A stretch of DNA of 32,550 nt, taken from positions 1 through 32,550 of the forward strand of contig JAGLUN010000005.1 of assembly GCA_023134705.1 (NCBI GenBank). Direction: 5' to 3'. Each line of letters begins with the position of its first letter. The stretch's first letter is position 1. Under the pieces are notes generated by a model, which saw only the letters and a list, made by a program, of their open reading frames with translations, was not told where the DNA came from and did not search any database. This stretch comes from Candidatus Omnitrophota bacterium. GTDB lineage: Bacteria; Omnitrophota; Gorgyraeia; Duberdicusellales; 4484-171. The translations under genes were made by a program, and so were the position numbers. Positions 12,502 to 28,828 of this stretch are shown one piece after another.

Positions 12502-14202
12502 CTAATCAACTTCAGCCTTGGTAACTCGAAGTACCTCTTCTACGGTAGTTAGTCCTGATAAGAGTTTCTCGATAGCCGAATCTCTTAATGTACGCATGCC
12601 TTCTTTTACCGCTACTTCCCGGACTTCTTTAGCCGAAGCTTTCCGCAAAGTAAACCTCTGAATTTCAGTGCTGTTTGGCATAATTTCATAGATAGCCACT
12701 CTTCCTTTATACCCTAACATATTGCAGAATTTGCATCCTTTACCCCGGTATAATTTTTTAATTTCTCCTGTCTTTTTTTCTAATCCTATAGCCTTCAGAA
12801 CTTCTTCGGAAGGAAAATATTCTTCCCGGCAATAACTGCATATTTTTCTCATTAACCTTTGAGCAAGTACTCCCAGAAGAGAAGAAGATACCAGAAACGG
12901 TTCTACACCCATATCAGTAAGCCGGGCGAATGCCGAAGGAGCATCATTTGTATGAAGAGTAGAAAAAACCAGATGCCCGGTTAAAGCGGCCTGCACGGCA
13001 ATTTCCGCGGTCTCTAAATCTCTTATTTCCCCGACTAAAATAACATCCGGATCCTGACGCAGGAATGAACGTAAAGCGGAACTAAAGCGCAGCCCGATTT
13101 TTGGCATTACCTGAACCTGCCGTATTTGCGGAAAACGGTACTCTACCGGATCCTCAACCGTCATAATATTAACATCTTCATTATTAAGCTTCTGCAAAGC
13201 GGCGTATAAAGTAGTAGTTTTGCCGCTTCCTGTGGGGCCGGTAACTAAAATTATTCCATAAGGCTGACTGATTAGAGATTCAACATCTTTCAGCTGATGA
13301 GGTAAAAAACCTAAACTTTCTAATCCCAAAGCCATATTGCTTTTATCAAGGATTCTAAGCACAATATTCTCACCGTGAACAGTAGGGCAAGTAGAAACTC
13401 TGAAGTCTATTTCTTTCTTCCCGATTTTCATCATAATCCTGCCGTCCTGAGGAAGTCTTTTTTCGGCAACATCCAAATTCGCCAATATCTTTACCCGGGA
13501 AATCACAGCCGGCTCTAAAAATTTCGGCAGAGAATCTCTTCGATAAAGAATACCGTCTGTCCGGCATCTAATTCCCAGGAACTTCTCTTCCGGCTCTATA
13601 TGTATATCAGAAGCATTCTCTTCAATGGCTTTTGAAATAATGATATTCACCAATTTAATAATTGGCGCTTCCCCTTCTACTTCAGGCGTATCTTTCAACT
13701 TATCTTTATCTATTCCGTCTATAAGCTCCCGTAATGAAGACGAAGTTCCATAATACTGTTCCTGCGCTTTTTTTATCTCCATTTCATCAGCCAGCACCGG
13801 CTCTATAATACATCCGGTATGTCTCTGGAGTTCATCAATAATAAACACATTCGTAGGCTCAACCATTGCCACGGTAAGAACATTCCCGGTCTTAAAAACA
13901 GGTATTAATTTATACTTCCGGGAAATATCTTCAGGAATAAGCTCAATCACTTTATTCTCGATAATATAACTCGCAAGTTCAAAAGTGCTTACCCCCATCT
14001 GGGTAGCTAAAAAACGGTTTACCACTCCCTGAGATACCCATCCTTTCTTTATGAGAATCTCCCCTATTTTTTCTCCGGTCATTTTCTGTTCTTCAAGAGC
14101 CTCCTCTAACTGAGAAGAATTAATATAGTTTTCCTGAAGAAGACTCTCCCCGATCTTCCATTCTTTTTCCTGAAAATTACCTTTCCCCAGATTAGCGTCC
14201 AT
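12502..14202 (-). CDS. Type IV pilus/type II secretion assembly ATPase (PilB/GspE family)
   Basis: N-terminal GspE_N-like domain, Walker A GPTGSGKTT, VEDPVEYRFPQIRQVQV, RQDPDVILVGEIRD, CSYCREEY...CKFCNMLGYKGR tetracysteine zinc motif. Confidence 0.96.
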   Translation of the reverse strand: MDANLGKGNFQEKEWKIGESLLQENYINSSQLEEALEEQKMTGEKIGEILIKKGWVSQGVVNRFLATQMGVSTFELASYIIENKVIELIPEDISRKYKLIPVFKTGNVLTVAMVEPTNVFIIDELQRHTGCIIEPVLADEMEIKKAQEQYYGTSSSLRELIDGIDKDKLKDTPEVEGEAPIIKLVNIIISKAIEENASDIHIEPEEKFLGIRCRTDGILYRRDSLPKFLEPAVISRVKILANLDVAEKRLPQDGRIMMKIGKKEIDFRVSTCPTVHGENIVLRILDKSNMALGLESLGFLPHQLKDVESLISQPYGIILVTGPTGSGKTTTLYAALQKLNNEDVNIMTVEDPVEYRFPQIRQVQVMPKIGLRFSSALRSFLRQDPDVILVGEIRDLETAEIAVQAALTGHLVFSTLHTNDAPSAFARLTDMGVEPFLVSSSLLGVLAQRLMRKICSYCREEYFPSEEVLKAIGLEKKTGEIKKLYRGKGCKFCNMLGYKGRVAIYEIMPNSTEIQRFTLRKASAKEVREVAVKEGMRTLRDSAIEKLLSGLTTVEEVLRVTKAEVD

Positions 14203-14281
14203 AATTACTTACCTTTTAAGTTAAAATCCCGATTCTTATATTTTTATAAAATTATCCGGTTTAAACTATATTTCGAGGGAC

Positions 14282-14315
14282 AAAAAAACACCCATACCTT
14301 TTCAAGTATGGGTGT
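14282..14315 (-). terminator. Rho-independent terminator downstream of the pilin gene
   Basis: Perfect 10-bp stem ACACCCATAC / GTATGGGTGT (14288-14297 with 14306-14315), 8-nt loop, followed on the minus strand by a T7 tract. Confidence 0.9.
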
Positions 14316-14342
14316 CGTTTTGATAAAACAAAACATAACGGC

Positions 14343-14897
14343 CTAATCTTTAGCTATTAAAATACAAAGAGAATCAACACCGCTTCCATCAGCATTTCCG
14401 TCGCATCCACAAACAGTACCATCAGTAGCAGCTCCGGCACAAGCAAGATAAGCAGCACCCCCGTCAAGAGTATTTTCAATTCTATTCCGCTCATTAGCAG
14501 GGATATTCGTCAGGATAAAATAGGCATATCTTTTGACAGAGTTATTCCCGTCAAAATTAGGAGTAGTAGCCACATGATATCCCACTACATCCGCAGCCGC
14601 CCTTTTCCAGGGATGTGTCGGCCAGGCTTGCAAATAAGGGCCTTCCCAACCAGGCTGAGCATCGGTAAGAGTAAATCCATTAGCAGCTCCACCGGTAGTG
14701 GCAGCAGGCCAACCACGGGTGTCATTAAAATAAGAAAAAGCAGCTGTCTTCATAGTATTATAATCAGAAACCACACGGGATGACCTTGCCTTATCGATCT
14801 GCTTAAAAACCTGAGGAGCGATAACCGCACCTAAAACAGCGATAATAGCGATAACAACCATCAATTCAATTAAAGTAAAACCTTTTCCTTTCCTCAT
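14343..14897 (-). CDS. Major pilin/pseudopilin (GspG-like)
   Basis: Prepilin signal MRKGKGFTLIELMVVIAIIAVLGAVIAPQ; strong SD AAGGAGGTG upstream. Confidence 0.93.
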   Translation of the reverse strand: MRKGKGFTLIELMVVIAIIAVLGAVIAPQVFKQIDKARSSRVVSDYNTMKTAAFSYFNDTRGWPAATTGGAANGFTLTDAQPGWEGPYLQAWPTHPWKRAAADVVGYHVATTPNFDGNNSVKRYAYFILTNIPANERNRIENTLDGGAAYLACAGAATDGTVCGCDGNADGSGVDSLCILIAKD

Positions 14898-14950
14898 TCT
14901 TCACCTCCTTCTCTGTCAGAATTAGTTAATACAAAATTTAACACAATTCG

Positions 14951-14979
14951 AGTCTACCACATTTTTTTAAAAAAACCAA
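14951..14979 (-). promoter_or_regulatory. Candidate sigma70-type promoter for the pilin gene
   Basis: Minus strand TTGGTT (14979-14974) - 17 bp - TAGACT (14956-14951); predicted leader of roughly 45 nt to ATG 14897, containing the SD. Confidence 0.45.
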
Positions 14980-15034
14980 GTATTTTTTTTACTTTTCTAA
15001 CTAAAAACCGGCAATTCAAAAACCAATTTAGCGG

Positions 15035-15063
15035 TTGAAAAAGCTGATAAAATGATATATACT
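15035..15063 (+). promoter_or_regulatory. Sigma70-type promoter for the pseudopilin operon
   Basis: TTGAAA (15035-15040) - 17 bp - TATACT (15058-15063). Confidence 0.6.
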
Positions 15064-15069
15064 TAAACC

Positions 15070-15534
15070 GTGCGTAAAGGTTTTACTTTTATAGAACTTA
15101 TGGTGATACTTGCTATTATAGCAGTAACTTTAGGAGTTATTGTTATGTCTTTCAGCGGCCTTTCCTCTCACAAAGCTGAAGCCGAAGCAAGAAAACTGAA
15201 AGCTGCCTTTTTTCTGGCCAGGGAATCGGCCGTTAACAAAAATAGCAATTTCATCGTCCATCTTCAAAAAGATCCGGGCAAAAGCCGTACGGAATGCACC
15301 GTTTATGAAGAGGGGGGAAGCGCGAGTAATCCTATAAGAAAAGATATGTTTATCTCTACAATCAACCCTGATCCCGCGGCTCCGGGATACGATATAAGAT
15401 TCGATACTTTTTCCAACACTAATAGAACCGCGGGGATAATTACCTTTAGTCAAAATACTATTACCTTAACCCAGGGAGCCAAACAAAGAGTAATAACCCT
15501 GAATCGAAAGACAGGTTATATAGAAGTACAGTAA
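15070..15534 (+). CDS. GspH-like pseudopilin
   Basis: Class III prepilin leader MRKGFTFIELMVILAIIAVTLGVIVM, GTG start; followed by further prepilin-like genes. Confidence 0.85.
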   Translation: MRKGFTFIELMVILAIIAVTLGVIVMSFSGLSSHKAEAEARKLKAAFFLARESAVNKNSNFIVHLQKDPGKSRTECTVYEEGGSASNPIRKDMFISTINPDPAAPGYDIRFDTFSNTNRTAGIITFSQNTITLTQGAKQRVITLNRKTGYIEVQ

Positions 15535-15536
15535 AG

Positions 15537-15956
15537 ATGAAAACTAAAGAAAGAAGCAAAAAAAAAGCTTTAACTTTAATTGAGCTTATTGTTTCTATCC
15601 TTATTCTGGGAGTAGTTATGGCCGGACAGATGAAAATACTCCAGGAAGGCCTGAGTTTCGCCAAAAAAACCAATGAAACTGTCTACGCTTATAATATCGT
15701 CACCTCTATACTTGAAGATTACAGTAACTGGGATACACTTACTACTGAGGGAGACGGCTCAAACCAAGACATTGGTTCAATTACTTTAAAATTAGGCACT
15801 CAGACTATGACTTTCCAGCGGGAAATCGATATAACTTCCAGCCTAATAGCCGGCATAGCCATAAAAGACGTCACAGCAAGAGTCAGATGGATAGGGGGAT
15901 ACAGCAATCAAAATAAAAGCATAGAGATTCACACTACTATTACTTACGGTTCTTAA
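15537..15956 (+). CDS. GspI-like pseudopilin
   Basis: KKALTLIELIVSILILGVVMAGQMKIL prepilin segment; 2 bp after the preceding gene. Confidence 0.85.
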   Translation: MKTKERSKKKALTLIELIVSILILGVVMAGQMKILQEGLSFAKKTNETVYAYNIVTSILEDYSNWDTLTTEGDGSNQDIGSITLKLGTQTMTFQREIDITSSLIAGIAIKDVTARVRWIGGYSNQNKSIEIHTTITYGS

Positions 15957-15968
15957 AAAAGAAAGCCT

Positions 15969-16451
15969 ATGATAAAAAATAAAAACAAATCCCGGTTAAA
16001 AAAAGGCTTAACTCTGATAGAAGTCATAGTTACTATCGGCATATTTTCACTGGTAAGCATTACCGCGACAACTGTATTTACCGTCTGCCTCAGTTCCTGG
16101 CATAAGCAAAAAGAAGGTCTGGATTTGATGAGAAACGCTAACTGGGCTTTGAAATTTCTCACCAATGAAATAAGGCAAGCGGAAGAAAACTCATTTAATT
16201 ATACTGATGTTAATGAAATTAGTTTTACCATAGATACCGATACCATTACTTATCGTAAAGATCCAACTAACCAGGAACTGCTGGTAAGAGAAGTAAACGG
16301 CGGGGGGCAGGAAACAGTTGTTAGTAATTTAAAGACTTCAGTAGATATCTTCCCTGGCTACGCAGACGGACTGCTGGAAATAGAAATTTATCTGGCAAGA
16401 ACCAGCCGGGAGGTTCAACTGAAATCAAAAATAAGGATACGAAACCCATGA
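15969..16451 (+). CDS. GspJ-like pseudopilin
   Basis: LKKGLTLIEVIVTIGIFSLVSITATTVFTVCLSSW prepilin segment. Confidence 0.85.
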   Translation: MIKNKNKSRLKKGLTLIEVIVTIGIFSLVSITATTVFTVCLSSWHKQKEGLDLMRNANWALKFLTNEIRQAEENSFNYTDVNEISFTIDTDTITYRKDPTNQELLVREVNGGGQETVVSNLKTSVDIFPGYADGLLEIEIYLARTSREVQLKSKIRIRNP

Positions 16452-17383
16452 TTAGTAAAATTAATCGAAAAGGCAAAAAAAGGAAAGCCCAAATTTTTCT
16501 CTATGTTCTTGTAATGGTAGCTGTCATGGGAGCATTAGGCGCGAGCCTGAGTAATGTCTGGCAATCGGAGCTTGCTCAAGGCCCTATCGCAAAAGACGGG
16601 CTTCAGGCTTTTTACATTGCCCAGGCCGGATTAGAGCGGGCAAAAGCGGAATTAGCCGCTAACTGGAACTGGGCCGCATTACCCGATTGCTCCACAGGAA
16701 CATTCAGCGTTAATTACCAAAACGGCACATACTCTCTTTGTAAAGACGACACCGCGGTAAGAAAAGTTTATTCTATCGGCGAATTCGGAAACGCGAAACG
16801 GGTATTGGAAACAACCCTGGCCCAGGGAGGCGGAGAAGAGTATACGCCGGGAGTATGTTTAGAGTCCGAAGAAGATTGTATTTATAGCGAATGCAACCCC
16901 GGTCAATGCCTCCATCCTTGCATATTAGAATGCATCTCGGGAATTGTTCTTAAAGAGGACTTTAAAGCCCTCTATCCACAACAAAATATACGTACCGAAC
17001 TCTTTAATGATTTAAGAAATACCGGCTACATAGATACCAAGGGACGGATACAACAAGCTTTTGAAGATTTAAATGGATATTCCGAGTTAGTATTAGATGC
17101 GGCTTTTATGGATGAGCAGGAAGAAATATATAATATTCTGAAAGAGACCGGGAGCCAGGCTGAAACTGAATTTTCCAACTGCATATATGACAATTGCTGG
17201 GACGAAGGGAACCAGGGATGGCATTGGGGATGTATTAATACATGCGTTGAGAATGTCCCTGATGATTGCACCTTAGTGTGCCACGAAGATTGCTGTGAAG
17301 TTATAACTTGCACCGAAGTATGCATAAATTATCAACCTCCGGTAACCCTGCCCGGTACAAGCGGCTGGAAAGAAACGCAATAA
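16448..17383 (+). CDS. GspK/PilX-like minor pilin with Cys-rich C-terminal region
   Basis: N-terminal KAQIFLYVLVMVAVMGALGASLSNVW hydrophobic segment, AFYIAQAGLERAKAEL typical of PilX/GspK; start overlaps the preceding stop (ATGA); about 18 Cys in 311 aa. Confidence 0.75.
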   Translation: MISKINRKGKKRKAQIFLYVLVMVAVMGALGASLSNVWQSELAQGPIAKDGLQAFYIAQAGLERAKAELAANWNWAALPDCSTGTFSVNYQNGTYSLCKDDTAVRKVYSIGEFGNAKRVLETTLAQGGGEEYTPGVCLESEEDCIYSECNPGQCLHPCILECISGIVLKEDFKALYPQQNIRTELFNDLRNTGYIDTKGRIQQAFEDLNGYSELVLDAAFMDEQEEIYNILKETGSQAETEFSNCIYDNCWDEGNQGWHWGCINTCVENVPDDCTLVCHEDCCEVITCTEVCINYQPPVTLPGTSGWKETQ

Positions 17384-17743: not shown

Positions 17744-18946
17744 TCACTCTTCCATCTGGCGTTCTAATTTTTTGCGTTGAGAGACTAATCGTTTTTGTTT
17801 TTTGAACAACTTAGTTATTCTTTTATCCAATCCGGCAGAGTCATCTGCACCGGCTTGTTCGATTTTTTTCTTCTCCCTATACCAGCCGCCTAATCTCTGC
17901 TCTTCCTGCCTTGACCGGGCAAAGCTTTTTTCAGAAATTATGGTGGGCGAAACAAAAATTAACAACTCGGTTTTATCTTTAACCTTCCTTGTGCTCTTAA
18001 ATAAAGATCCCAGGATAGGAAGATCCCCTAATAAAGGAATCTTTGTTTCTTCTTTAATCCTTTTATCTTTAATTAAACCTCCGATAATAAGCGTCTGGCC
18101 GTTACCTACGACAATTTTTGTGGAAGCAGTTCTTTTATCAATAATCGGCACGGCATATTCTATCGGCTCAGCAAGCCCGCTCTCATAGACTTCAAGGGTA
18201 AAATCCGAAACATGCTCGCTTATTTCCGGCTCTAAAACCATAGTAATTTTATTATCTTCGTTTATTGTCGGGGTAACATTCAAAATTATACCTATCTCCT
18301 CAAAATTAACATTCCAGGTAACAGAAACAATCCCCTCATTATTCTCCACCGAAGGCTCAGCCCAGGGAACATCCTGAACAATCTTTATATTAGCGGGATA
18401 ATTGTTCACGGTAGCTATACGGGGAGCCGAAAGGATATTTGTATCTAAGGAATTGGCTAAAACCTGGAGTACCACGTTAATGTTATCGTCAAATATAGCT
18501 AAGCTAAAAGGGTCTTCACTGCTAGTTGAGGTAGTAGGCGGCCAATAGGTATCTTTGTAACTGATAGCCTGGCTCAAAACTCCCGGCGCACCGGGATAAG
18601 CAGAACCTCCTTTGAACTGGCCAAGGTCAAACCCGCCGTTTTCGGTAAAAGCCTCCCACCTTATCCCCAGAGCATGCTCTCCCTGTAATTTCACCTCTAC
18701 AACTCTTGCTTCAATAAGGACCTGCTGAGGGTAAACATCTACCATCTCCAAATACTTCTCAATCGTTCTTATATTGGAAGGGTAATCAATAACAAGAATC
18801 GAATTCTGCTCACTGCCAAAAAGCACTTTCCCTTCGCTTGAAATAAGAGAACTTAAATCAGAAATGCCTTCAGAGTAAACCGGGGATATAAATAATATTA
18901 GTACCCCTAAAAAAAATAACAATATTTTTTTTGCGTTTTTATCCAT
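17744..18946 (-). CDS. Secretin C-terminal part (GspD/PilQ beta-barrel domain) with its own signal peptide
   Basis: VYPQQVLIEARVVEV, VPIIDKRTASTKIVVGNGQTLIIGGLIKDK, IPLLGDLPILGSLFKSTRKVKDKTELLIFVSPTII secretin motifs; N-terminal KKILLFFLGVLILFISPVYSE. ORF track start is GTG 18955; ATG 18946 has SD AGGAGGGG. Confidence 0.92.
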   Translation of the reverse strand: MDKNAKKILLFFLGVLILFISPVYSEGISDLSSLISSEGKVLFGSEQNSILVIDYPSNIRTIEKYLEMVDVYPQQVLIEARVVEVKLQGEHALGIRWEAFTENGGFDLGQFKGGSAYPGAPGVLSQAISYKDTYWPPTTSTSSEDPFSLAIFDDNINVVLQVLANSLDTNILSAPRIATVNNYPANIKIVQDVPWAEPSVENNEGIVSVTWNVNFEEIGIILNVTPTINEDNKITMVLEPEISEHVSDFTLEVYESGLAEPIEYAVPIIDKRTASTKIVVGNGQTLIIGGLIKDKRIKEETKIPLLGDLPILGSLFKSTRKVKDKTELLIFVSPTIISEKSFARSRQEEQRLGGWYREKKKIEQAGADDSAGLDKRITKLFKKQKRLVSQRKKLERQMEE

Positions 18947-18960
18947 AAATACCACCCCTC

Positions 18961-19779
18961 CTATTGAGACGTATCTTCTTCTCCTAAAGTCCCTACTACT
19001 TCTTTCGCGTTTATATATTTGAGTTTAAAAATTCTACTGCTCATACCTTTATCCGCCATTTCCAAATATTCGCGGACCTTATCCACGTTTTCCGGATGGT
19101 CAATAACCATAATTGAATTATGCTGTTTACCCAACAAAACTTTACCTACAGGCGACAAAAGGCTGTTAATTTTTACGACTAAAGCCTTCCCTGTTGTGCC
19201 GGCTGAGGTTTCCTCGTCCTCTTTGGAAGAAACAGACTTTCCTGCCTGGCCGATACTCTCATCAATAATTGTTTTAGCTTCAATATGCTTAAGAATAAAT
19301 ACTTTAGTAATCAGATACGGTTTCACTATAATCACATTCCCATCCTTCTCAAAAATCAAACCATGCATATCGGAAATCTTTTTTATAGCCTCATCCAGAG
19401 AAATATTTGTCAGACTGGCAGTAATCTCACCTTTGACGTCTTTATCGATCAAAATATTAAGGTCATAGTCATGGGCGATTATCCGGAAGAAATCAGCTAA
19501 GGCGACTCCTCTTAATTCAATAGAATACAACGGCTTTTCCGTTTCCAATCGTTTAATCTCTAAAAGAGGCAAAGTTTCGGTAATCTCCTTTTTAGCCTCT
19601 TCTTCTTTCTTTTTCTCTTCTCTTAAAATATCTTTAACCCGGCCTCTAATAACCTCCTCCTGATTTTCATCTTCGGTTTCTTCTATCACCGTGCGTTTTG
19701 CCTTTTTTTCCTTAGAAAAAGCCGCGCCGGATAGATTCAACAATAATCCTGTAACTATTAATAACCTTAGAAGATTCAT
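18961..19779 (-). CDS. Secretin N-terminal domains (STN/N0 and N1) as a separate protein
   Basis: Signal peptide MNLLRLLIVTGLLLNLSGAAFS; IELRGVALADFFRIIAHDYDLNILIDKDVKGEITASLTNISLDEAIKKI (STN/N0); GKVLLGKQHNSIMVIDHPENVDKVREYLEMAD (N1-type). Confidence 0.88.
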   Translation of the reverse strand: MNLLRLLIVTGLLLNLSGAAFSKEKKAKRTVIEETEDENQEEVIRGRVKDILREEKKKEEEAKKEITETLPLLEIKRLETEKPLYSIELRGVALADFFRIIAHDYDLNILIDKDVKGEITASLTNISLDEAIKKISDMHGLIFEKDGNVIIVKPYLITKVFILKHIEAKTIIDESIGQAGKSVSSKEDEETSAGTTGKALVVKINSLLSPVGKVLLGKQHNSIMVIDHPENVDKVREYLEMADKGMSSRIFKLKYINAKEVVGTLGEEDTSQ

Positions 19780-21734
19780 GTTTTTTCTCCTAATTGAGAT
19801 AAAATTTCCTTAACAAACAAATTAAAACTTTCTTCATTCAAATTATCGGTCCGGATTACGGCTACCGAATTCCGGACTAAATTCACAACAATTTTTTCTT
19901 TACCTTCCCCGCTAAAAAAACTCAGATTTTCACTCTCTTCGGATACCGATTCAAACCCGTCCTTTTCCAACCAGGTTCTATAGGCCCCAAAAAATTCCCG
20001 GGCATCATCTTTTGTATCCCACGCGGTTAAAAGAAAAAATACATTTTCACTGTCAATATTCTCATAGATAATTAAACTATCGCTGCCCCAGCCGGAAGAA
20101 GCCTTTTGGGAAATATCTCTTTCCAGAAGCACATCAAGAGATAAAAAAAGCAAATATTCCCCGATAGAGGTAGAATAAATATTTTTCCACCCCGTGGGCG
20201 AAGAAAACATCAAAATGTTTTTTTTGCCGTTATTCGCGGTTTCTTTTTTTGAAATTTGTTTTCGTAAAAAATATTTTTTTGGATGCATAATCTCTTCCAT
20301 GGAAATAGGAAAATCCTCATAAAACATATCCAGCTGATCCCACTCATACCTTTTCAAACAAGCCTGGATGAATCTCCCTCCGTATCCGTATATATTATAA
20401 AATATTTTATTGCCGGAATAAGAATCCCCTCCGAATCTTTTTTTGACTAAAGAAAAGACATCTTCCCATTCCCGGAAACTTTCATTGTCTTTACGCAAGA
20501 GATACTCGAAACTGACGGCAAAAGCTTCTCCTTCAATAAGAGATTTTAAAGCGAATTTTAAATCAAGATCGTCCCCGGCATATTTCAAAAATCTTTCCAG
20601 GCCGATCCTTTCATCCTGAAAGGCATGAACTATCTCATGAACGCAGATTACCTCGGCCAGAGGAGGCTCTAACCAATCCCCCAGGAAAATTGCCTTTCTT
20701 TCAGGTTCGTAGATGCCGGATACTAAACGAAGCTGAGAATTAGCGAGCATCGCACTATAATCGGCCTCTCCGGGAATCAGCCGCAGCCATTTTAAAATCT
20801 TCTCATCTCTTTTTATCTCCCCGGGAGAGTACTCAGATTTGATCCCTTCAATAATCATATCCCCGATATCTCTTCTTTTTACGAATTCCACCTTTACACT
20901 TTCTAAATCACAATCTTTCCAGCCTCTTATCCGGGCAACTTCGGTGAATAAATCGTTTATTTTATTTACTAAAGCATCTTTTTCCTTCTTAACTTCTTCC
21001 GAAATAACCGCGGGCGGATCAAATTCTAATTGAGCGTTATAATTATGGTAATCAACCATCTGCAGTAAACTCATATATCCCAGCTTCCCTTCTAAGCGTG
21101 AAGCTAACGGCAGAAAAGTTTTTTTATCGGCCCAAATTTTAACGGTTATATCTGATACTAACTCCCAGCCTCCAAATGTCTCTTCTTTAATTTTATATTT
21201 AATAACAAAACAATCAGTCCCTCTTTTGTCCTCTTCCCCCAGAAACTCCATGGTGGAGAAATCTACACTTTCTTCATTAAGATAGAACAGGCTTTTTAAA
21301 AAAGATTCCTGCAGCATCTTCCTGGTCTTTTTCTCTTCTATATCCTGAGTCTCTTTTTTCCATTCTCCATTCTGAGATTCCCAGGTAAAAGGTATTCCCC
21401 GGATAGTATAAGACTGAACCCAGGACGAAGTAGAAAACTTATCGTTAGGGATAAGTGACGAACTACTAACTCTTCCTTCCACTTTAGAGTCATCCATGTT
21501 CTTAATAAGATTTTTAAACTTAAATTTCGTATGCTTTGCCGGGCTCTGGAACCAGCTCTCTATGGTTACTTCTACTGATTCGCTGTTATAAAACGCTGAA
21601 ACGATTTTCTGCAGAATCCGATAAGGAGAAATCTTTCCTTCATAGTATATACCATTACTTGAGGAACAGGTCCTTCCGATTATTGTCAGGACTAAAAACA
21701 TACTCAGAAATAATATTATTTTATTCTTTTTCAT
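19776..21734 (-). CDS. Exported protein with LolA-like N-terminal region and HExxH metallopeptidase-like motif
   Basis: Hydrophobic N-terminus; ILQKIVSAFYNSESVEVTIESWFQSP...VKIWADKKTFLPLASRLEG resembles LolA/RseB-type folds; VICVHEIVHAFQDE followed by SLIEGEAFAVSFEYL (possible third ligand Glu). Confidence 0.6.
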   Translation of the reverse strand: MKKNKIILFLSMFLVLTIIGRTCSSSNGIYYEGKISPYRILQKIVSAFYNSESVEVTIESWFQSPAKHTKFKFKNLIKNMDDSKVEGRVSSSSLIPNDKFSTSSWVQSYTIRGIPFTWESQNGEWKKETQDIEEKKTRKMLQESFLKSLFYLNEESVDFSTMEFLGEEDKRGTDCFVIKYKIKEETFGGWELVSDITVKIWADKKTFLPLASRLEGKLGYMSLLQMVDYHNYNAQLEFDPPAVISEEVKKEKDALVNKINDLFTEVARIRGWKDCDLESVKVEFVKRRDIGDMIIEGIKSEYSPGEIKRDEKILKWLRLIPGEADYSAMLANSQLRLVSGIYEPERKAIFLGDWLEPPLAEVICVHEIVHAFQDERIGLERFLKYAGDDLDLKFALKSLIEGEAFAVSFEYLLRKDNESFREWEDVFSLVKKRFGGDSYSGNKIFYNIYGYGGRFIQACLKRYEWDQLDMFYEDFPISMEEIMHPKKYFLRKQISKKETANNGKKNILMFSSPTGWKNIYSTSIGEYLLFLSLDVLLERDISQKASSGWGSDSLIIYENIDSENVFFLLTAWDTKDDAREFFGAYRTWLEKDGFESVSEESENLSFFSGEGKEKIVVNLVRNSVAVIRTDNLNEESFNLFVKEILSQLGEKT

Positions 21735-22191
21735 CTACGATTTTTTCTGTTCTAATAATGTATTCTTTGCCCCGGTAATCCCGCAATATTACTTCTTCCG
21801 GGTTTATCTTTACCACTCTCTTGTTATCAATTATATCCTTTTCTTTTATGAGGCGGCCGTTAATTATAGCCCTGGCATTATCTTCTCCATGGAAAACAGC
21901 GGACAATTTTAAATAATAAATCCTCTCTCTTTTATTCTTTTCAAAATATTCCGCTTCTTCCAGGGTAAGAAAAGGATTAGCCTTAAAAGATTCTTTAGAA
22001 AAAAGAGGCTTCTTAACCAGCCGCGTGCTTTTACTTTTTTTAACCGGGGCAGTAGAAGTTTGCTTCGGCGGCCGTATAACTTCTATTTCCGGCCTGCCGC
22101 ACCCTCCTAAAAACTCCATGCCTAAAAGGCTGATTAACATACTTATTTTAATCCCGGGCAAAAAATATTTTTTTTCTGCTAAATACCGCAT
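21721..22191 (-). CDS. PilP/GspB/GspC-like lipoprotein of the pilus/secretion complex
   Basis: LLGMEFLGGC lipobox-like segment; C-terminal LSAVFHGEDNARAIINGRLIKEKDIIDNKRVVKINPEEVILRDYRGKEYIIR resembles the HR domain of GspC/PilP/GspB proteins. Confidence 0.65.
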   Translation of the reverse strand: MRYLAEKKYFLPGIKISMLISLLGMEFLGGCGRPEIEVIRPPKQTSTAPVKKSKSTRLVKKPLFSKESFKANPFLTLEEAEYFEKNKRERIYYLKLSAVFHGEDNARAIINGRLIKEKDIIDNKRVVKINPEEVILRDYRGKEYIIRTEKIVDEKE

Positions 22192-22232: not shown

Positions 22233-22415
22233 TTACCCCCGGCCCATTATCTTCTTTAACTTTCTAATCTCCTCCTCAGTATATTCCCTCCAATGATTAA
22301 CCGCATTCCTTTTTGCTTTAGGAAACACCTCTTTTCTTTCATATCGAAAAAGAGTTTGTTTGGAAATCCCCAATTTTTCCGCGGCTTCCTGGGCGTTAAA
22401 ATATTTCCTTGCCAT
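22233..22415 (-). CDS. Small MerR/excisionase-like HTH protein
   Basis: FNAQEAAEKLGISKQTLFRYERKEVFPKAKRNAVNHWREYTEEEIRKLKKIM winged-HTH MerR pattern; 60 aa. Confidence 0.75.
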   Translation of the reverse strand: MARKYFNAQEAAEKLGISKQTLFRYERKEVFPKAKRNAVNHWREYTEEEIRKLKKIMGRG

Positions 22416-22802: not shown

Positions 22803-23462
22803 CTACTTAGCCCCCGGTTCATGAACTTCTATGGGGTAAGAATATGTATACGTAGTGAAGATAAGAATTACTTCCTGACGGGGCAGAACGCTCACGTCCG
22901 GACTTCTTTTAATTAACACCTGGTTTATATTTACTATCTGCTCTAATTCTAAGGCTTTCTCTATAAAAGAAACCAATTGGGCGTATTCAGATTCGAACAG
23001 CATCTTAAACTGATAAGGCACTATCGTCCTTGAATCAATATTACCTTTTGAAACAGGAAGATCTATGGGAATAAATCCTTTCCAGGAAACTGAACTATCA
23101 GAAGTTTCTTCGCCGGCTTTACCGCCTTCTTTGCCTTCTTCCTGTTGAAGGTCAAAAGTTACGTACTTAAGATCCAATCTTTTGCCCAGAAGAGTTAATT
23201 CCTTCATCGCGTTTAGAATAGCCCCTCTCCTCCTGGGAACCATTCTAAAAAGGGATTCCTCTTCCTCCGTGCCTTTATCCACTTCCTTTTTTAATTCGTT
23301 TAAAATATTTCCCGCGCTTTTGACGCCGGCTAATTCTTCCTGCCTCTCCCGCACTTTTCGCTTAAGAGAAAACATTTTTTTAACCTGAAATAAAAGCCCT
23401 GTAGAAATAAGAACGATAACAATAATTATCACTATTTCAATATTTAAGCCCGCTTTCTTCAT
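22803..23462 (-). CDS. pilO: PilO-like inner-membrane pilus assembly protein
   Basis: Single N-terminal TM, coiled coil, and PYQFKMLFESEYAQLVSFIEKALELEQIVNINQVLIKRSP typical of PilO; overlaps the pilMN stop. Confidence 0.8.
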   Translation of the reverse strand: MKKAGLNIEIVIIIVIVLISTGLLFQVKKMFSLKRKVRERQEELAGVKSAGNILNELKKEVDKGTEEEESLFRMVPRRRGAILNAMKELTLLGKRLDLKYVTFDLQQEEGKEGGKAGEETSDSSVSWKGFIPIDLPVSKGNIDSRTIVPYQFKMLFESEYAQLVSFIEKALELEQIVNINQVLIKRSPDVSVLPRQEVILIFTTYTYSYPIEVHEPGAK

Positions 23463-25258
23463 AGTTTTAAATCCGCGATTACTTTAAAATTCCTCCAGGT
23501 GAATTCGGTAAGTCTCACGATTTCTTCTTCAACGATAGGAAAAACCGGCGCTACCATAGGAGGATTTAATTTTATATTCCCGAAAGGCTTCAGTTTATCT
23601 AAATCTCTTACGAATTCTCCGATTATTTCATAAGCATCCTCATAATTAGCAAATGTGGTACCTTCTATTTCAATCTCATAGTTGAGTTCGGCAAGCGCTG
23701 ATGATCCGGAAGAAGGCTTCGTTTTAGGAGCTGTCCGCTTATTACTTTTTTCATCTAATACCTCATCTTTAGCGCGGATATCCAGAGAGGTAAACATTAT
23801 TTCCTGAGGTCTTACTTTCACTACTTCTTTTAAAATAAACGCGGGATTCATCCTTTGCTTCCGTAAACTTTCTATTTCTAGCTTTCTTGTTTTTAACTCC
23901 TGAATTCGCGAACGCAGTTGTGCCGCTTTTTGGCTAACTGACTTAAGCCTTTCGATTTCAAAATCAAGCCGCGAGATTGAACGCTCCGTACCCGCCGCAG
24001 CTATCCACAAACTCACTGATGTAAAAATGAATACCGCGATTAAAACTAAACCGATTCCGACAAAAATTAATCTTCTTACCCCCTTAGCTTCCGCCTTTTT
24101 AAGTTCTTCAGGGAGAAAATTAACTATTTTATCCGGCTTATGGGATAGATTCAAAGCCAGACTCAAAGCATTGGCGAAAAGCGTACTATCCTTATTAGTT
24201 TCACCCTCAAGCTCTATTCCTACGCCTTCGAAAGGATTAAGCAGTTCAAATTCAGCGTCAACTTTCTCTTTTAAGGAAAAAATCAAATTTTTGATCTGGG
24301 CGCCTCCGCCTAAAAACATCACCTCAGATACCACTCTCCCTTTAGTTAATTCTTTATAAAAAATGAATGTCCTCTTAAGTTCCTGTATTAATCTGTCTAT
24401 AAAAGGCTCCCATAATAATCTTACTTCTAAGGGATCTATCTCATCAGAACTCCCTTCGGCTGATCCCGCTTCGTACTTACGCTTCATTATTTCCTCAGCA
24501 ATTCTGACTCTGTCTTTAATATCAAATTCTATTTCAGGGATACCTTCTTCCTCCAATACTTCCCCGGCTTTCTGATGGCTAATTTCCATACCGGTGGCTA
24601 GAGCCTCTATAATGTTGGCACAACCAAAAGTAATATTTCTGCTAAATACCAAATTACCTTCTCTAAGGATAGAAATATCTATACAACTATGCCCGATATC
24701 AACCAGGGCGACGTCTTTTTTCTCAGCTATTATCTTCTTAAAAACAGGTGTATGATAAATCGCACATAAAGGCGAAATTAAAGAAGGAATGATCCCCAGC
24801 TCGGAAAAGATATTCAACAAGGGAGTAATACATTCTTTCTCCTCTTTTATTACTAAAACTTCATACCGGGAACCTTTTGTTCCAATTGTCTCGCCGAGAA
24901 GAAAATGCTCAAAGACACTATTAGGACCGGGGGAAGGAATCATTTTCCGTCTTGCTTCCATAATGGCAGTTTTACCCAGTACATTTTTATCCATCTTAGG
25001 CAAAATCACAGTCATTACCATCGGAGAATAAAAAGGGATATTTACCGCGAATTTAGCGTTTTTCAACCTGCTTAAAGGAATTCTTTCAGCAATAATTTTT
25101 ATGAAAGTTTTTTTATCTATTTCCTTTTGCTCGGCCAGGGTATCCAAATAAGGAGTAGGAAAACGAAAAGCCTGGATTAAGCTGAGCTTCCCAACATATT
25201 CTATCTCTACTACTTTAGTATGTAGACTCCCAATGTCTATACCGATTATCTCTTTCAT
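23459..25258 (-). CDS. PilM-PilN fusion protein
   Basis: N-terminal actin-like PilM (IIGIDIGSLHTKVVEI; VALVDIGHSCIDISILREG; MFLGGGAQIKNL), then TM RLIFVGIGLVLIAVFIFTSVSLWI and coiled-coil/ferredoxin-like PilN region. ATG at 25258 has SD GGGAGGA; ORF track starts at 25282. Confidence 0.9.
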   Translation of the reverse strand: MKEIIGIDIGSLHTKVVEIEYVGKLSLIQAFRFPTPYLDTLAEQKEIDKKTFIKIIAERIPLSRLKNAKFAVNIPFYSPMVMTVILPKMDKNVLGKTAIMEARRKMIPSPGPNSVFEHFLLGETIGTKGSRYEVLVIKEEKECITPLLNIFSELGIIPSLISPLCAIYHTPVFKKIIAEKKDVALVDIGHSCIDISILREGNLVFSRNITFGCANIIEALATGMEISHQKAGEVLEEEGIPEIEFDIKDRVRIAEEIMKRKYEAGSAEGSSDEIDPLEVRLLWEPFIDRLIQELKRTFIFYKELTKGRVVSEVMFLGGGAQIKNLIFSLKEKVDAEFELLNPFEGVGIELEGETNKDSTLFANALSLALNLSHKPDKIVNFLPEELKKAEAKGVRRLIFVGIGLVLIAVFIFTSVSLWIAAAGTERSISRLDFEIERLKSVSQKAAQLRSRIQELKTRKLEIESLRKQRMNPAFILKEVVKVRPQEIMFTSLDIRAKDEVLDEKSNKRTAPKTKPSSGSSALAELNYEIEIEGTTFANYEDAYEIIGEFVRDLDKLKPFGNIKLNPPMVAPVFPIVEEEIVRLTEFTWRNFKVIADLKL

Positions 25259-25259
25259 C

Positions 25260-26471
25260 TTATCCTCCCGCCAATTCAGCAAGCTGAATCATCGGTAAAA
25301 ATACTGCCAAAGCTATCCCTCCGACAATAATCCCCATAACCACAATCATTAATGGTTCAAACAAAGCGAATATACCTCTTATTACCCGCGGTAGCTCTTT
25401 ATCATAAAAAGCGCTGACTTTCTCCAGATTCTGGGCGATGTTACCCGACTCCTCTCCAACTTTGATCATTTGAATTACTAAAGCGGGAACCTGCCCCGAT
25501 TCTTCCATACTGTCGGCAATCTTTTCCCCGACATTAACAGCATCACGCACTTTCAAACCTATCTGCCGCAAATAATTGTTATCCATTGCCTCCGCTCCCA
25601 TTTCCAAAGCAGATAAAACATTTACACCTGATTTCAGTGCTAACCCCAGGATATAACAAAACCTGGAAATAATAATGTTTTTTAAAAGACCACCGAAAAG
25701 AGGAAATTTTAATTTTAACTTATCAATCTGATATGCCCCTTTAGGAGTAGAGTAAATATATCTATATATACCGACAAGAGCCCCTACCACTATCAGAATG
25801 ATATACCACGAACCTGTGATAACGTCACTTATTCCCATTACAACCCGGGTAGGAAGCGGTAATTCTACTCCGGCAGTCGCGAATAAAGGTTTGAAAATAG
25901 GCACCACCTTTATCATTAACATAACAATTACCATTATCATTACGCAAAAAAGAATAATCGGGTATGTCGCGGCTTCTTTTATCTTCGCTTTTAAATCCGC
26001 GTCCCACTCTAGATAAGAAGAAAGGCTCTCTAAAACAAGAGTAAGCTTTCCCGTAGCCTCTCCCGCGCCTATAATTGAAGTATATAAGCTTGAAAACACG
26101 CGGGGATGCGCGGACAAGGCCTCTTTAAGATAACTACCGCTTTCGGTCCTGGCACAGATATCATCTATTATCTTTTTAGCATTTTCATTATCAATGGTTT
26201 TACTTAAATTCTTTAATCCCCCGACTAAAGGGATCCCGGCTTCAATCAGAGTACCTAAATGCTGGGTAAAAATCAAAACGTCATGAGGCTTCATTCTTAA
26301 ACCTCTCCGGCCTTTATTACCGGATTGTACCCCTTTAGCGATTTTTGAGCTGCTCAGGAAATGTCCTGAGTTCCTTACTTTTTCAGCCAAATCAAGCTCA
26401 TTCTCGGCAAACATTACCCCTTTAACATTCTTACCGGATTGATCTTTGGCTACATAAACATATCTTTGCAT
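25260..26471 (-). CDS. Type IV pilus/T2SS inner-membrane platform protein (PilC/GspF)
   Basis: FTQHLGTLIEAGIPLVGGL, ALSAHPRVFSSLYTSIIGAGEATGKL, MIKVGEESGNIAQNLEKVSAFYDKE; start MQRYVYVAKDQSGKNVKG preferred over ORF-track 26489. Confidence 0.96.
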   Translation of the reverse strand: MQRYVYVAKDQSGKNVKGVMFAENELDLAEKVRNSGHFLSSSKIAKGVQSGNKGRRGLRMKPHDVLIFTQHLGTLIEAGIPLVGGLKNLSKTIDNENAKKIIDDICARTESGSYLKEALSAHPRVFSSLYTSIIGAGEATGKLTLVLESLSSYLEWDADLKAKIKEAATYPIILFCVMIMVIVMLMIKVVPIFKPLFATAGVELPLPTRVVMGISDVITGSWYIILIVVGALVGIYRYIYSTPKGAYQIDKLKLKFPLFGGLLKNIIISRFCYILGLALKSGVNVLSALEMGAEAMDNNYLRQIGLKVRDAVNVGEKIADSMEESGQVPALVIQMIKVGEESGNIAQNLEKVSAFYDKELPRVIRGIFALFEPLMIVVMGIIVGGIALAVFLPMIQLAELAGG

Positions 26472-26495
26472 ACTTCTTTCTCCGGGCAATAATTT

Positions 26496-27970: not shown

Positions 27971-28828
27971 TCAATGTAATAAAGTTAATACTTTATCACC
28001 CCAGATAAAACAAAAAAGAGCTGCCAGAGATAAATAAGGAAGATAGGGTATTACATGCGAACGTTTAAAAATTAAAGCAAACAAAGTATAAAACAGAGCA
28101 ATAAAAGGAGCGACAAAAAAAGTCAAAATTGCCATCTTCCATCCTAAAAATACGCCTACCATCCCGATAAAATCAACATCGCCTAAACCTAAGGATTCAT
28201 TTTCACCTTCAATGGATTCCTTTTTTCGTAAGGATAAATACAGATTGAGAAAAACATCTCCGAAAAATTTAAAAAAATAAGTAAATCCGAATCCAAAAAT
28301 CAATCCTTTAAAGGAATTAACTACCGGAAGACTGAACATGTCAAAAAAAGCGTTATTCTTTATAAACTCCACACTTTCGTAAATACTGAAAACAATCCCT
28401 ACACTTATACCGATGAAACAGAGTAACACCGGTATAGCCCGGTAATCTATATCAATTAAAGATACAATGATAAGTAAAGAGAAAAAGAAAGCAAATTTTA
28501 AGAAATTTAATAAGAGTACGCTATTTATGGCAAAACCGGGCCCGATAAATTCATATTTCATATAAAGCGATAAAAATAATACCGCAGTGGTAAATTCCAC
28601 TAAGGGATAACGGAACGATATTTTTTCTTTACAGTTTCTGCATTTTCCCTTTAGAAAGAAATAACCCAATATAGGTATATTATCATACCACTTTATCGAA
28701 GAGTTACATTTAGGGCAGAATGAAGAAGGTTTTATGACAGAAATCTCTTTGGGCATCCTGTAAATACACACGTTCAGAAAACTACCTATACAACTCCCGA
28801 AAATAAATATCCATATTTTTTCTATCAT
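27971..28828 (-). CDS. pilD: Prepilin peptidase (GspO/PilD)
   Basis: GSCIGSFLNVCIYRMP, FCPKCNSSIKWYDNIPILGYFFLKGKCRNCKEKISFRYPLVE tetracysteine motif, SLIDIDYRAIP and GLGDVDFIGMVG catalytic Asp motifs. Confidence 0.96.
   Translation of the reverse strand: MIEKIWIFIFGSCIGSFLNVCIYRMPKEISVIKPSSFCPKCNSSIKWYDNIPILGYFFLKGKCRNCKEKISFRYPLVEFTTAVLFLSLYMKYEFIGPGFAINSVLLLNFLKFAFFFSLLIIVSLIDIDYRAIPVLLCFIGISVGIVFSIYESVEFIKNNAFFDMFSLPVVNSFKGLIFGFGFTYFFKFFGDVFLNLYLSLRKKESIEGENESLGLGDVDFIGMVGVFLGWKMAILTFFVAPFIALFYTLFALIFKRSHVIPYLPYLSLAALFCFIWGDKVLTLLH

What the first reader, a model, noticed from the sequence alone, without database searches (positions are those of the whole stretch)
17744..19779. Secretin split into two separately exported proteins, with the break inside an N-domain
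The upstream ORF carries STN/N0 and a full N1-type domain, then begins a second N-domain (SSRIFKLKYINAKEVVGTLGEEDTSQ-stop). The downstream ORF, in a different reading frame, has its own SD (AGGAGGGG) and signal peptide, then supplies the rest of that domain (ISDLSSLISSEGKVLFGSEQNSILVIDYPSNIRTIEKYLEMVD) and the secretin barrel. The SD and signal peptide argue against a simple frameshift. If real, the two halves would have to complement a split domain in the periplasm, which could act as an assembly checkpoint or detachable gate.
Basis: partly seen in the sequence, partly recalled or inferred. Interest (0 to 1): 0.66.

Follow-up and report, generated by a model that had tools for sequence, protein, structure and literature searches.

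The report
Secretin split within one domain
In a branch of uncultured Omnitrophota bacteria, the outer-membrane gate of a pilus/secretion machine is made as two separately exported proteins cut through the middle of one folded domain; the cut is conserved in 21 of the 22 related genes examined, so it is a real biological arrangement and not a sequencing error.

Summary
A (19779-18961, minus strand) has a signal peptide, N0/STN, N1 and the first strand-helix of a second N-domain. B (18946-17744) has its own SD and signal peptide, the rest of that domain, and the secretin barrel. A's tail matches Secretin_N positions 1-18 and B's head 19-68. Joined, they score 38.1 bits (cut-off 28.2); neither half passes alone.

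It is not an artefact. Of 22 orthologous loci in Omnitrophota (six families, at least two classes), 21 have the same break. Every B has its own signal peptide, all three relative reading frames occur, and the gaps run from -4 to 245 nt. Both half-domains are about as conserved (53% pairwise identity) as the barrel. One genome (G025) has a single ORF at the same locus, with a Ser/Thr-rich loop at the break; trees favour re-fusion there (AU p 0.007 and 0.074).

Best mechanism (inferred): A donates a strand-helix in trans to complete B's N3-equivalent domain, the one needed for prepore formation in PulD. A would therefore hold the pore to the inner-membrane machine, and might license its assembly. 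Complementation and checkpoint are untested.

Precedents: rhizobial RhcC1/RhcC2 (different origins, not fission) and mitochondrial GspDN2/N3 half-domains. I rate it a new variant of a known kind.

The parts
18961..19779 (-). secA: 272-aa N-terminal half of the secretin (signal peptide, N0/STN, N1, first strand-helix of the last N-domain)
19714..19779 (-). secA signal peptide (MNLLRLLIVTGLLLNLSGAAFS)
   Evidence: sequence; inferred, no SignalP available
19312..19563 (-). N0/STN domain
   Evidence: Pfam STN 29.9 bits; AlphaFold pLDDT about 83-93 over this region; 53% mean pairwise identity
19051..19311 (-). N1 domain (complete Secretin_N)
   Evidence: Pfam Secretin_N 31.4 bits, profile 2-65
18991..19044 (-). 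First half (beta1-alpha1) of the split, barrel-proximal N-domain
   Evidence: Secretin_N profile 1-18; 53% mean pairwise identity and no gaps over 20 A proteins
18955..18962 (-). Shine-Dalgarno AGGAGGGG of secB, overlapping the secA stop codon
17744..18946 (-). secB: 400-aa C-terminal half of the secretin
18872..18946 (-). secB signal peptide (MDKNAKKILLFFLGVLILFISPVYS)
   Evidence: hydrophobic core, best 11-residue Kyte-Doolittle mean 3.40; equivalent segment of the fused G025 protein 0.06
18737..18865 (-). Second half (helix-beta-beta-alpha) of the split N-domain
   Evidence: Secretin_N profile 19-68, 26-68; 53% mean pairwise identity
17936..18736 (-). Secretin barrel region
   Evidence: PF00263 153.8 bits over residues 165-337
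19776..21734 (-). 652-aa Hvo_1808-like/DUF6782 putative metallopeptidase; its stop overlaps the secA start by 4 nt; neighbour, role unknown
21721..22191 (-). PilP/GspC-like periplasmic protein, likely partner of N0 (inferred)
   Evidence: Pfam CdsD_C/T2SSB weak hits; conserved upstream of secA
22803..26489 (-). PilO, PilM(-N) and PilC/GspF of the same machine
12502..17383 (.). PilB/GspE ATPase (12502-14202 -), GspG-like pilin (14343-14897 -), minor pilin operon (15070-17383 +)
27971..28828 (-). Prepilin peptidase PilD

Best explanation
This is the secretin of a type IV pilus/type II secretion-like machine in an Omnitrophota lineage, encoded as two adjacent, probably translationally coupled genes after an ancient gene fission in a disordered loop of the barrel-proximal (N3-equivalent) N-domain. 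Shown by sequence: the conserved break; two signal-peptide-like N-termini; complementary and conserved half-domains; conserved location (merR-pilP-secA-secB-gspE-gspG). Inferred: A and B are exported separately by Sec; A's C-terminal strand-helix pairs with B's remaining half-domain in the periplasm, much like donor-strand complementation, rebuilding the domain in each ring subunit; A's N0 then ties the pore to the PilP/PilM/PilO platform. Because the N3 domain is the region reported as critical for prepore formation in PulD, B alone should assemble poorly, so A may license pore assembly. That last step is speculative.
For: The same break is found in 21 of 22 orthologous loci. All 21 B proteins begin with a hydrophobic signal-like segment, best 11-residue hydropathy mean 2.22-3.63, against 0.06 in the equivalent loop of the fused G025 protein. 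A and B are always adjacent, gap -4 to 245 nt, in all three relative frames. Half-domains: 14.2 and 24.5 bits apart, 38.1 bits joined, with no overlap of profile positions. Mean pairwise identity: N2 beta1-alpha1 in A 0.53, N2 second half in B 0.53, barrel 0.52; loop/tail 0.11-0.15, signal peptides about 0.2. A fused orthologue at the same locus (L036/G025; merR-pilP-sec-gspE-gspG) carries the domain as one Secretin_N match, 242-335. L201 (another class) lost N1 entirely yet keeps half-domain plus break. PulD N3 as the critical prepore region: PMC6946019; N3 as thermodynamic seal: PMC5646246.
Against: No physical evidence of an A-B interaction. The AlphaFold models possible here were low confidence (mean pLDDT 54.7 and 32.9, 3-row alignments), and a joined A+B chain was not accepted for folding. 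Signal peptides are judged by hydropathy only. The single origin with re-fusion is favoured but not certain (AU p 0.007, 0.074). Nothing is known about expression or stoichiometry.
Confidence: 0.82

Rival explanations
1. Assembly or sequencing indel, or a pseudogene: one secretin gene broken in this MAG.
For: The window is a single contig of a 94-contig draft genome. B contains poly-A runs near its start. One intact relative exists.
Against: The same break, with a new signal peptide and usually an SD, in 20 other loci from six families and at least two classes, separate assemblies. Both halves as conserved as the barrel.
Confidence: 0.01
2. Programmed frameshift or stop read-through makes one continuous protein from the two ORFs.
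For: The genes are adjacent, and four loci have A and B in the same frame with stops between.
Against: All three relative frames occur, gaps up to 245 nt, several loci with overlapping stop/start, and each B begins with a signal-peptide-like segment that would lie inside a periplasmic domain if fused.
Confidence: 0.02
3. A and B form separate rings that stack; the half-domains do not pair with each other but fold alone or serve another contact.
For: N-domains of XcpQ oligomerise without the C-domain (PMC5646246). No direct evidence of pairing exists.
Against: The half-domains are complementary parts of one Secretin_N profile with additive score. The A half keeps its hydrophobic strand pattern FKLKY with no gaps in 20 A proteins. 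A natural fusion restores one domain. L201 keeps the half even after losing N1.
Confidence: 0.12
4. Several independent fissions at the same permissive loop, with G025 keeping the ancestral single gene, instead of one fission and one re-fusion.
For: The loop is Ser/Thr-rich and poorly conserved, so a natural weak point. AU p 0.074 in the larger-ingroup tree. G025's exact sister is unresolved.
Against: G025 is nested among split genes in both barrel trees, needing two changes in all 200 bootstrap trees; AU p 0.007 in one set.
Confidence: 0.25

Closest known systems
PilQ (type IVa pilus) and GspD (type II secretion) secretins
   Same: N0/STN, Secretin_N domains and secretin barrel; same machine partners (PilM, PilO, PilP-like, PilB/GspE, PilC/GspF, pilins, PilD)
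   Different: Two polypeptides instead of one; below NCBIfam equivalog/subfamily cut-offs for PilQ and GspD even when fused (P0015: 277.2 against 284.35; 266.8 against 351.35)
RhcC1/RhcC2 (rhizobial and P. syringae T3SS-2 split secretin)
   Same: Secretin function divided over an N-terminal and a C-terminal gene (PMC3574062, PMC3973906)
   Different: There the two proteins have different origins: RhcC2 is Tad-derived with a BON domain, a partial gene replacement (PMC3459982), and the genes lie apart. Here both halves match one continuous orthologue and are adjacent, and the break is inside a domain
Mitochondrial T2SS GspDN2/GspDN3 (heteroloboseans, jakobids, malawimonads)
   Different: Eukaryotic nuclear genes; the barrel is yet another protein lacking all N-domains; bacterial two-piece operon with Sec signal peptides here
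Donor-strand complementation (chaperone-usher pili)
   Same: Works like: an incomplete domain is completed in trans by a strand from another polypeptide (established knowledge; inferred here)
   Different: No homology; the donor here is the other half of the same domain; not tested structurally

Membership tests
Secretin superfamily (PF00263) | Secretin barrel domain over the curated cut-off | tested here: met
   P0002 153.8 bits, cut-off 27.5
Secretin superfamily (PF00263) | N-domains preceding the barrel (STN/N0, Secretin_N) | tested here: met
   STN 29.9 and Secretin_N 31.4 bits in A; split domain 38.1 bits only when joined
Secretin superfamily (PF00263) | One polypeptide carries N-domains and barrel (usual, not universal) | tested here: not met
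   Two ORFs in 21 of 22 loci
Secretin superfamily (PF00263) | Multimeric outer-membrane pore | not testable with these tools
   Needs protein work
PilQ (TIGR02515) | Score over NCBIfam cut-off 284.35 | tested here: not met
   P0002 195.9, P0001 54.8, fused relative P0015 277.2
GspD (TIGR02517) | Score over NCBIfam cut-off 351.35 | tested here: not met
   P0002 226.6, P0015 266.8
RhcC1/RhcC2 split secretin | C-terminal part is a Tad-type secretin with an N-terminal BON domain | tested here: not met
   No BON hit in P0002; half a Secretin_N instead
RhcC1/RhcC2 split secretin | The two parts have different evolutionary origins | tested here: not met
   Both halves align to one continuous orthologue at the same syntenic locus
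Mitochondrial GspDN2/GspDN3 | Secretin_N domain cut into N- and C-terminal halves on separate proteins | tested here: met
   Profile positions 1-18 in A and 19-68 in B; shared origin with the mitochondrial proteins not tested
Programmed frameshift/read-through gene | Fixed frame relation at the junction and no independent export signal downstream | tested here: not met
   All three frames, signal peptide in every B

The most novel reading that the evidence does not exclude
An obligate two-component secretin in which A works as a dedicated donor-strand licensing factor: B cannot form a stable prepore until A, already held by the inner-membrane platform through N0, supplies the missing strand-helix of the N3-equivalent ring. 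Pore assembly would thereby be coupled to the presence of the machine below it.
Probability: 0.33. Interest if true: 0.78.

Novelty: new variant of a known kind. Interest (0 to 1): 0.62.

Why it matters
Every characterised bacterial secretin that I know of carries its periplasmic N-domains and barrel in one chain; the one reported bacterial exception (RhcC1/RhcC2) joins unrelated parts. Here a whole lineage keeps a cut through the very domain that controls prepore formation in PulD, and one relative seems to have rejoined it. That gives a natural test of whether secretin ring assembly can be controlled by trans-complementation of an N-domain. It also parallels the half-domain GspDN proteins of the mitochondrial T2SS, for which I know of no bacterial counterpart. 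Practically, annotation pipelines are likely to report these genes as truncated or frameshifted secretins in Omnitrophota.

Tried and rejected
AlphaFold of A and B separately, with the only alignments allowed (3 rows each): mean pLDDT 54.7 and 32.9; only N0 was confident; not used as evidence for the split domain and not sent to fold search. A joined A+B reading of L053 for folding was not accepted by the tool and not pursued; proteins from genome-search loci were not sent, as the stated rule does not list them. MAFFT alignments mixing A, B and the joined chain misplaced the repeated half-domains and were dropped. The genome-contig scan gave mostly unrelated proteobacterial secretins; only L053 and L054 were orthologues. 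A concatenated A+B tree did not resolve G025's sister. GTG 18955 as B start rejected (it overlaps the SD). Literature searches found no description of split secretins in Omnitrophota; the library holds open-licence papers only.

Full report
CHECK OF THE OBSERVATION. The two ORFs are present as described. A (19779-18961, minus strand, 272 aa) has a signal peptide-like start, STN/N0 (29.9 bits, cut-off 28.4), a complete Secretin_N domain (31.4 bits, cut-off 28.2) and then ..SSRIFKLKYINAKEVVGTLGEEDTSQ-stop. B starts at ATG 18946, 14 nt after A's stop and in another frame, behind the SD AGGAGGGG at 18955-18962. It has a signal peptide-like start, a partial Secretin_N match (profile 26-68) and a strong secretin barrel (153.8 bits). 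Tested as separate peptides, A's tail matches Secretin_N 1-18 at 14.2 bits and B's head 19-68 at 24.5 bits. Written one after the other they match 1-68 at 38.1 bits, over the cut-off that neither reaches alone. The same holds for G012 (L040), where the joined sequence passes at 32.8 bits. In G008 (L042) and G362 (L194) the B heads already pass by themselves (35.3 and 32.2 bits) and rise to 41.6 and 40.6 bits when joined.

IT IS NOT AN ERROR. The window lies in a 1.41-Mb draft genome, so an assembly indel had to be considered. Related genomes settle it. A search with A-halves over the family, order, class and phylum gives a clean group: loci over 180 bits, then a drop to 99 bits and below. With two named Candidatus Omnitrophota records from the genome-contig scan (L053 = G208, and L054) there are 22 orthologous loci. 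They fall in families f1 (8), f4 (3), f17 (4), f52 (4), f61 of another class (1) and f2 (1), plus L054 of unknown family. In 21 the gene is split at the same place. Every one of these B genes begins with a hydrophobic signal-like segment (best 11-residue hydropathy 2.22-3.63), whereas the equivalent stretch of the one fused protein scores 0.06. The gap between A's stop and B's start runs from -4 to +245 nt. After allowing for strand in the table, all three relative frames occur (4, 7 and 10 loci). That excludes a sequencing indel, and makes programmed frameshifting or read-through untenable as a general explanation. In L187 the B sequence after the signal peptide is masked, so its half-domain could not be read.

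BOTH HALVES ARE UNDER SELECTION. Across 20 A proteins, the 18 residues of beta1-alpha1 at the cut show 53% mean pairwise identity with no gaps, higher than the same element of the intact N1 domain (40%). The residues after it show 11%. In B, the remaining half shows 53%, the same as the barrel (52%), while signal peptides show about 20%. In L201, from another class, N1 has been lost altogether, yet the half-domain at A's end, its charged tail and the break remain. The smallest version is thus N0 + half domain | half domain + barrel.

ONE FUSED RELATIVE. G025 (family f2) has a single 691-aa protein (P0015) at the same locus, merR-pilP-secretin-gspE-gspG. The barrel-proximal domain gives one Secretin_N match over 242-335, with a long Ser/Thr-rich loop exactly at the break. 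In barrel trees rooted on other Omnitrophota secretins, this fused gene falls inside the split group; all 200 bootstrap trees need two changes. Holding the split genes as one clade is rejected in one data set (p-AU 0.007) and not quite in a second (p-AU 0.074). The exact sister of G025 is unresolved. One old fission and one later re-fusion is the simplest reading; repeated fission at a weak loop is not excluded.

WHAT MACHINE IT BELONGS TO. The window holds a full type IV filament cluster: PilD (27971-28828), PilC/GspF, PilM, PilO, a PilP/GspC-like protein, the split secretin, minor pilins, a GspG-like pilin, and PilB/GspE with an MshE-type cyclic-di-GMP motif. The secretin, even in fused form, stays just under the NCBIfam cut-off for PilQ and further under that for GspD, so I do not file it as either. 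The genome has four other secretin genes, each with its barrel in an open frame of 454-615 aa, and three PilT-family ATPases over the cut-off elsewhere. Type-4a pili are reported as common across Omnitrophota classes and discussed there as possible symbiosis traits (PMC10066038).

HOW IT PROBABLY WORKS. The cut domain is the one next to the barrel. By alignment to solved GspD it corresponds to N3, and the cut falls in a Gly/Ser-rich loop of GspD N3 as well. [quoted passage not shown] The most economical model is that A and B are exported separately and that A's strand-helix completes B's domain in trans in each ring subunit. The disordered tail of A and the missing loop would then be free ends at the surface, and N0 on A would link the pore to the PilP-like protein. 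If so, B should not assemble well before A arrives. Export and complementation follow from the sequence by inference. The licensing step is a hypothesis. Structure prediction could not test it here.

COMPARISON WITH WHAT IS KNOWN. Rhizobial and P. syringae T3SS-2 secretins are described as split (RhcC1/RhcC2; PMC3574062, PMC3973906). Abby and Rocha (PMC3459982) showed that RhcC2 is of Tad origin with a BON domain, so that case is a partial gene replacement, not a fission. In the mitochondrial T2SS, GspDN2 and GspDN3 are reported as C- and N-terminal halves of one Secretin_N domain (PMC8134430); that is the closest structural parallel, in eukaryotes. Gene fission in type IV filament systems is known for TadB/TadC (PMC6668835). 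I found no report of a bacterial secretin cut inside a domain by fission, in a library limited to open-licence papers. I therefore rate this as a new variant of a known kind.

Noticed in passing
window 19776-21734 (-): 652-aa secreted-looking protein related to Hvo_1808 surface proteins/DUF6782 metallopeptidases; its stop overlaps the secA start by 4 nt, and it sits between the pilP-like gene and secA in about half of the loci. Possible secretin accessory factor; role unknown.
   Followed up: partly
window 22233-22415 (-): A 60-aa MerR-type HTH protein is conserved just upstream of the pilP-like gene in nearly all orthologous loci.
   Followed up: partly
L201:395-2337 (-): A G394 secretin (another class) has lost the whole N1 domain but keeps the split in the last N-domain.
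   Followed up: partly
L037:6945-9209 (-), L039:4247-6502 (+), L041:6925-8553 (-): Several secB proteins carry long C-terminal extensions; in L039 the extension gives weak TPR matches, and similar repeats are visible by eye in L037 and L041. These might replace a pilotin.
   Followed up: no
window 16448-17383 (+): Cys-rich GspK-like minor pilin with no Pfam hit, in an operon opposite in direction to the secretin genes; in other loci with detectable matches the minor pilins lie on the same strand as secB.
   Followed up: no
window 12502-14202 (-): PilB/GspE ATPase with an MshE-type cyclic-di-GMP-binding motif (NF053729), suggesting second-messenger control of this machine.
   Followed up: no
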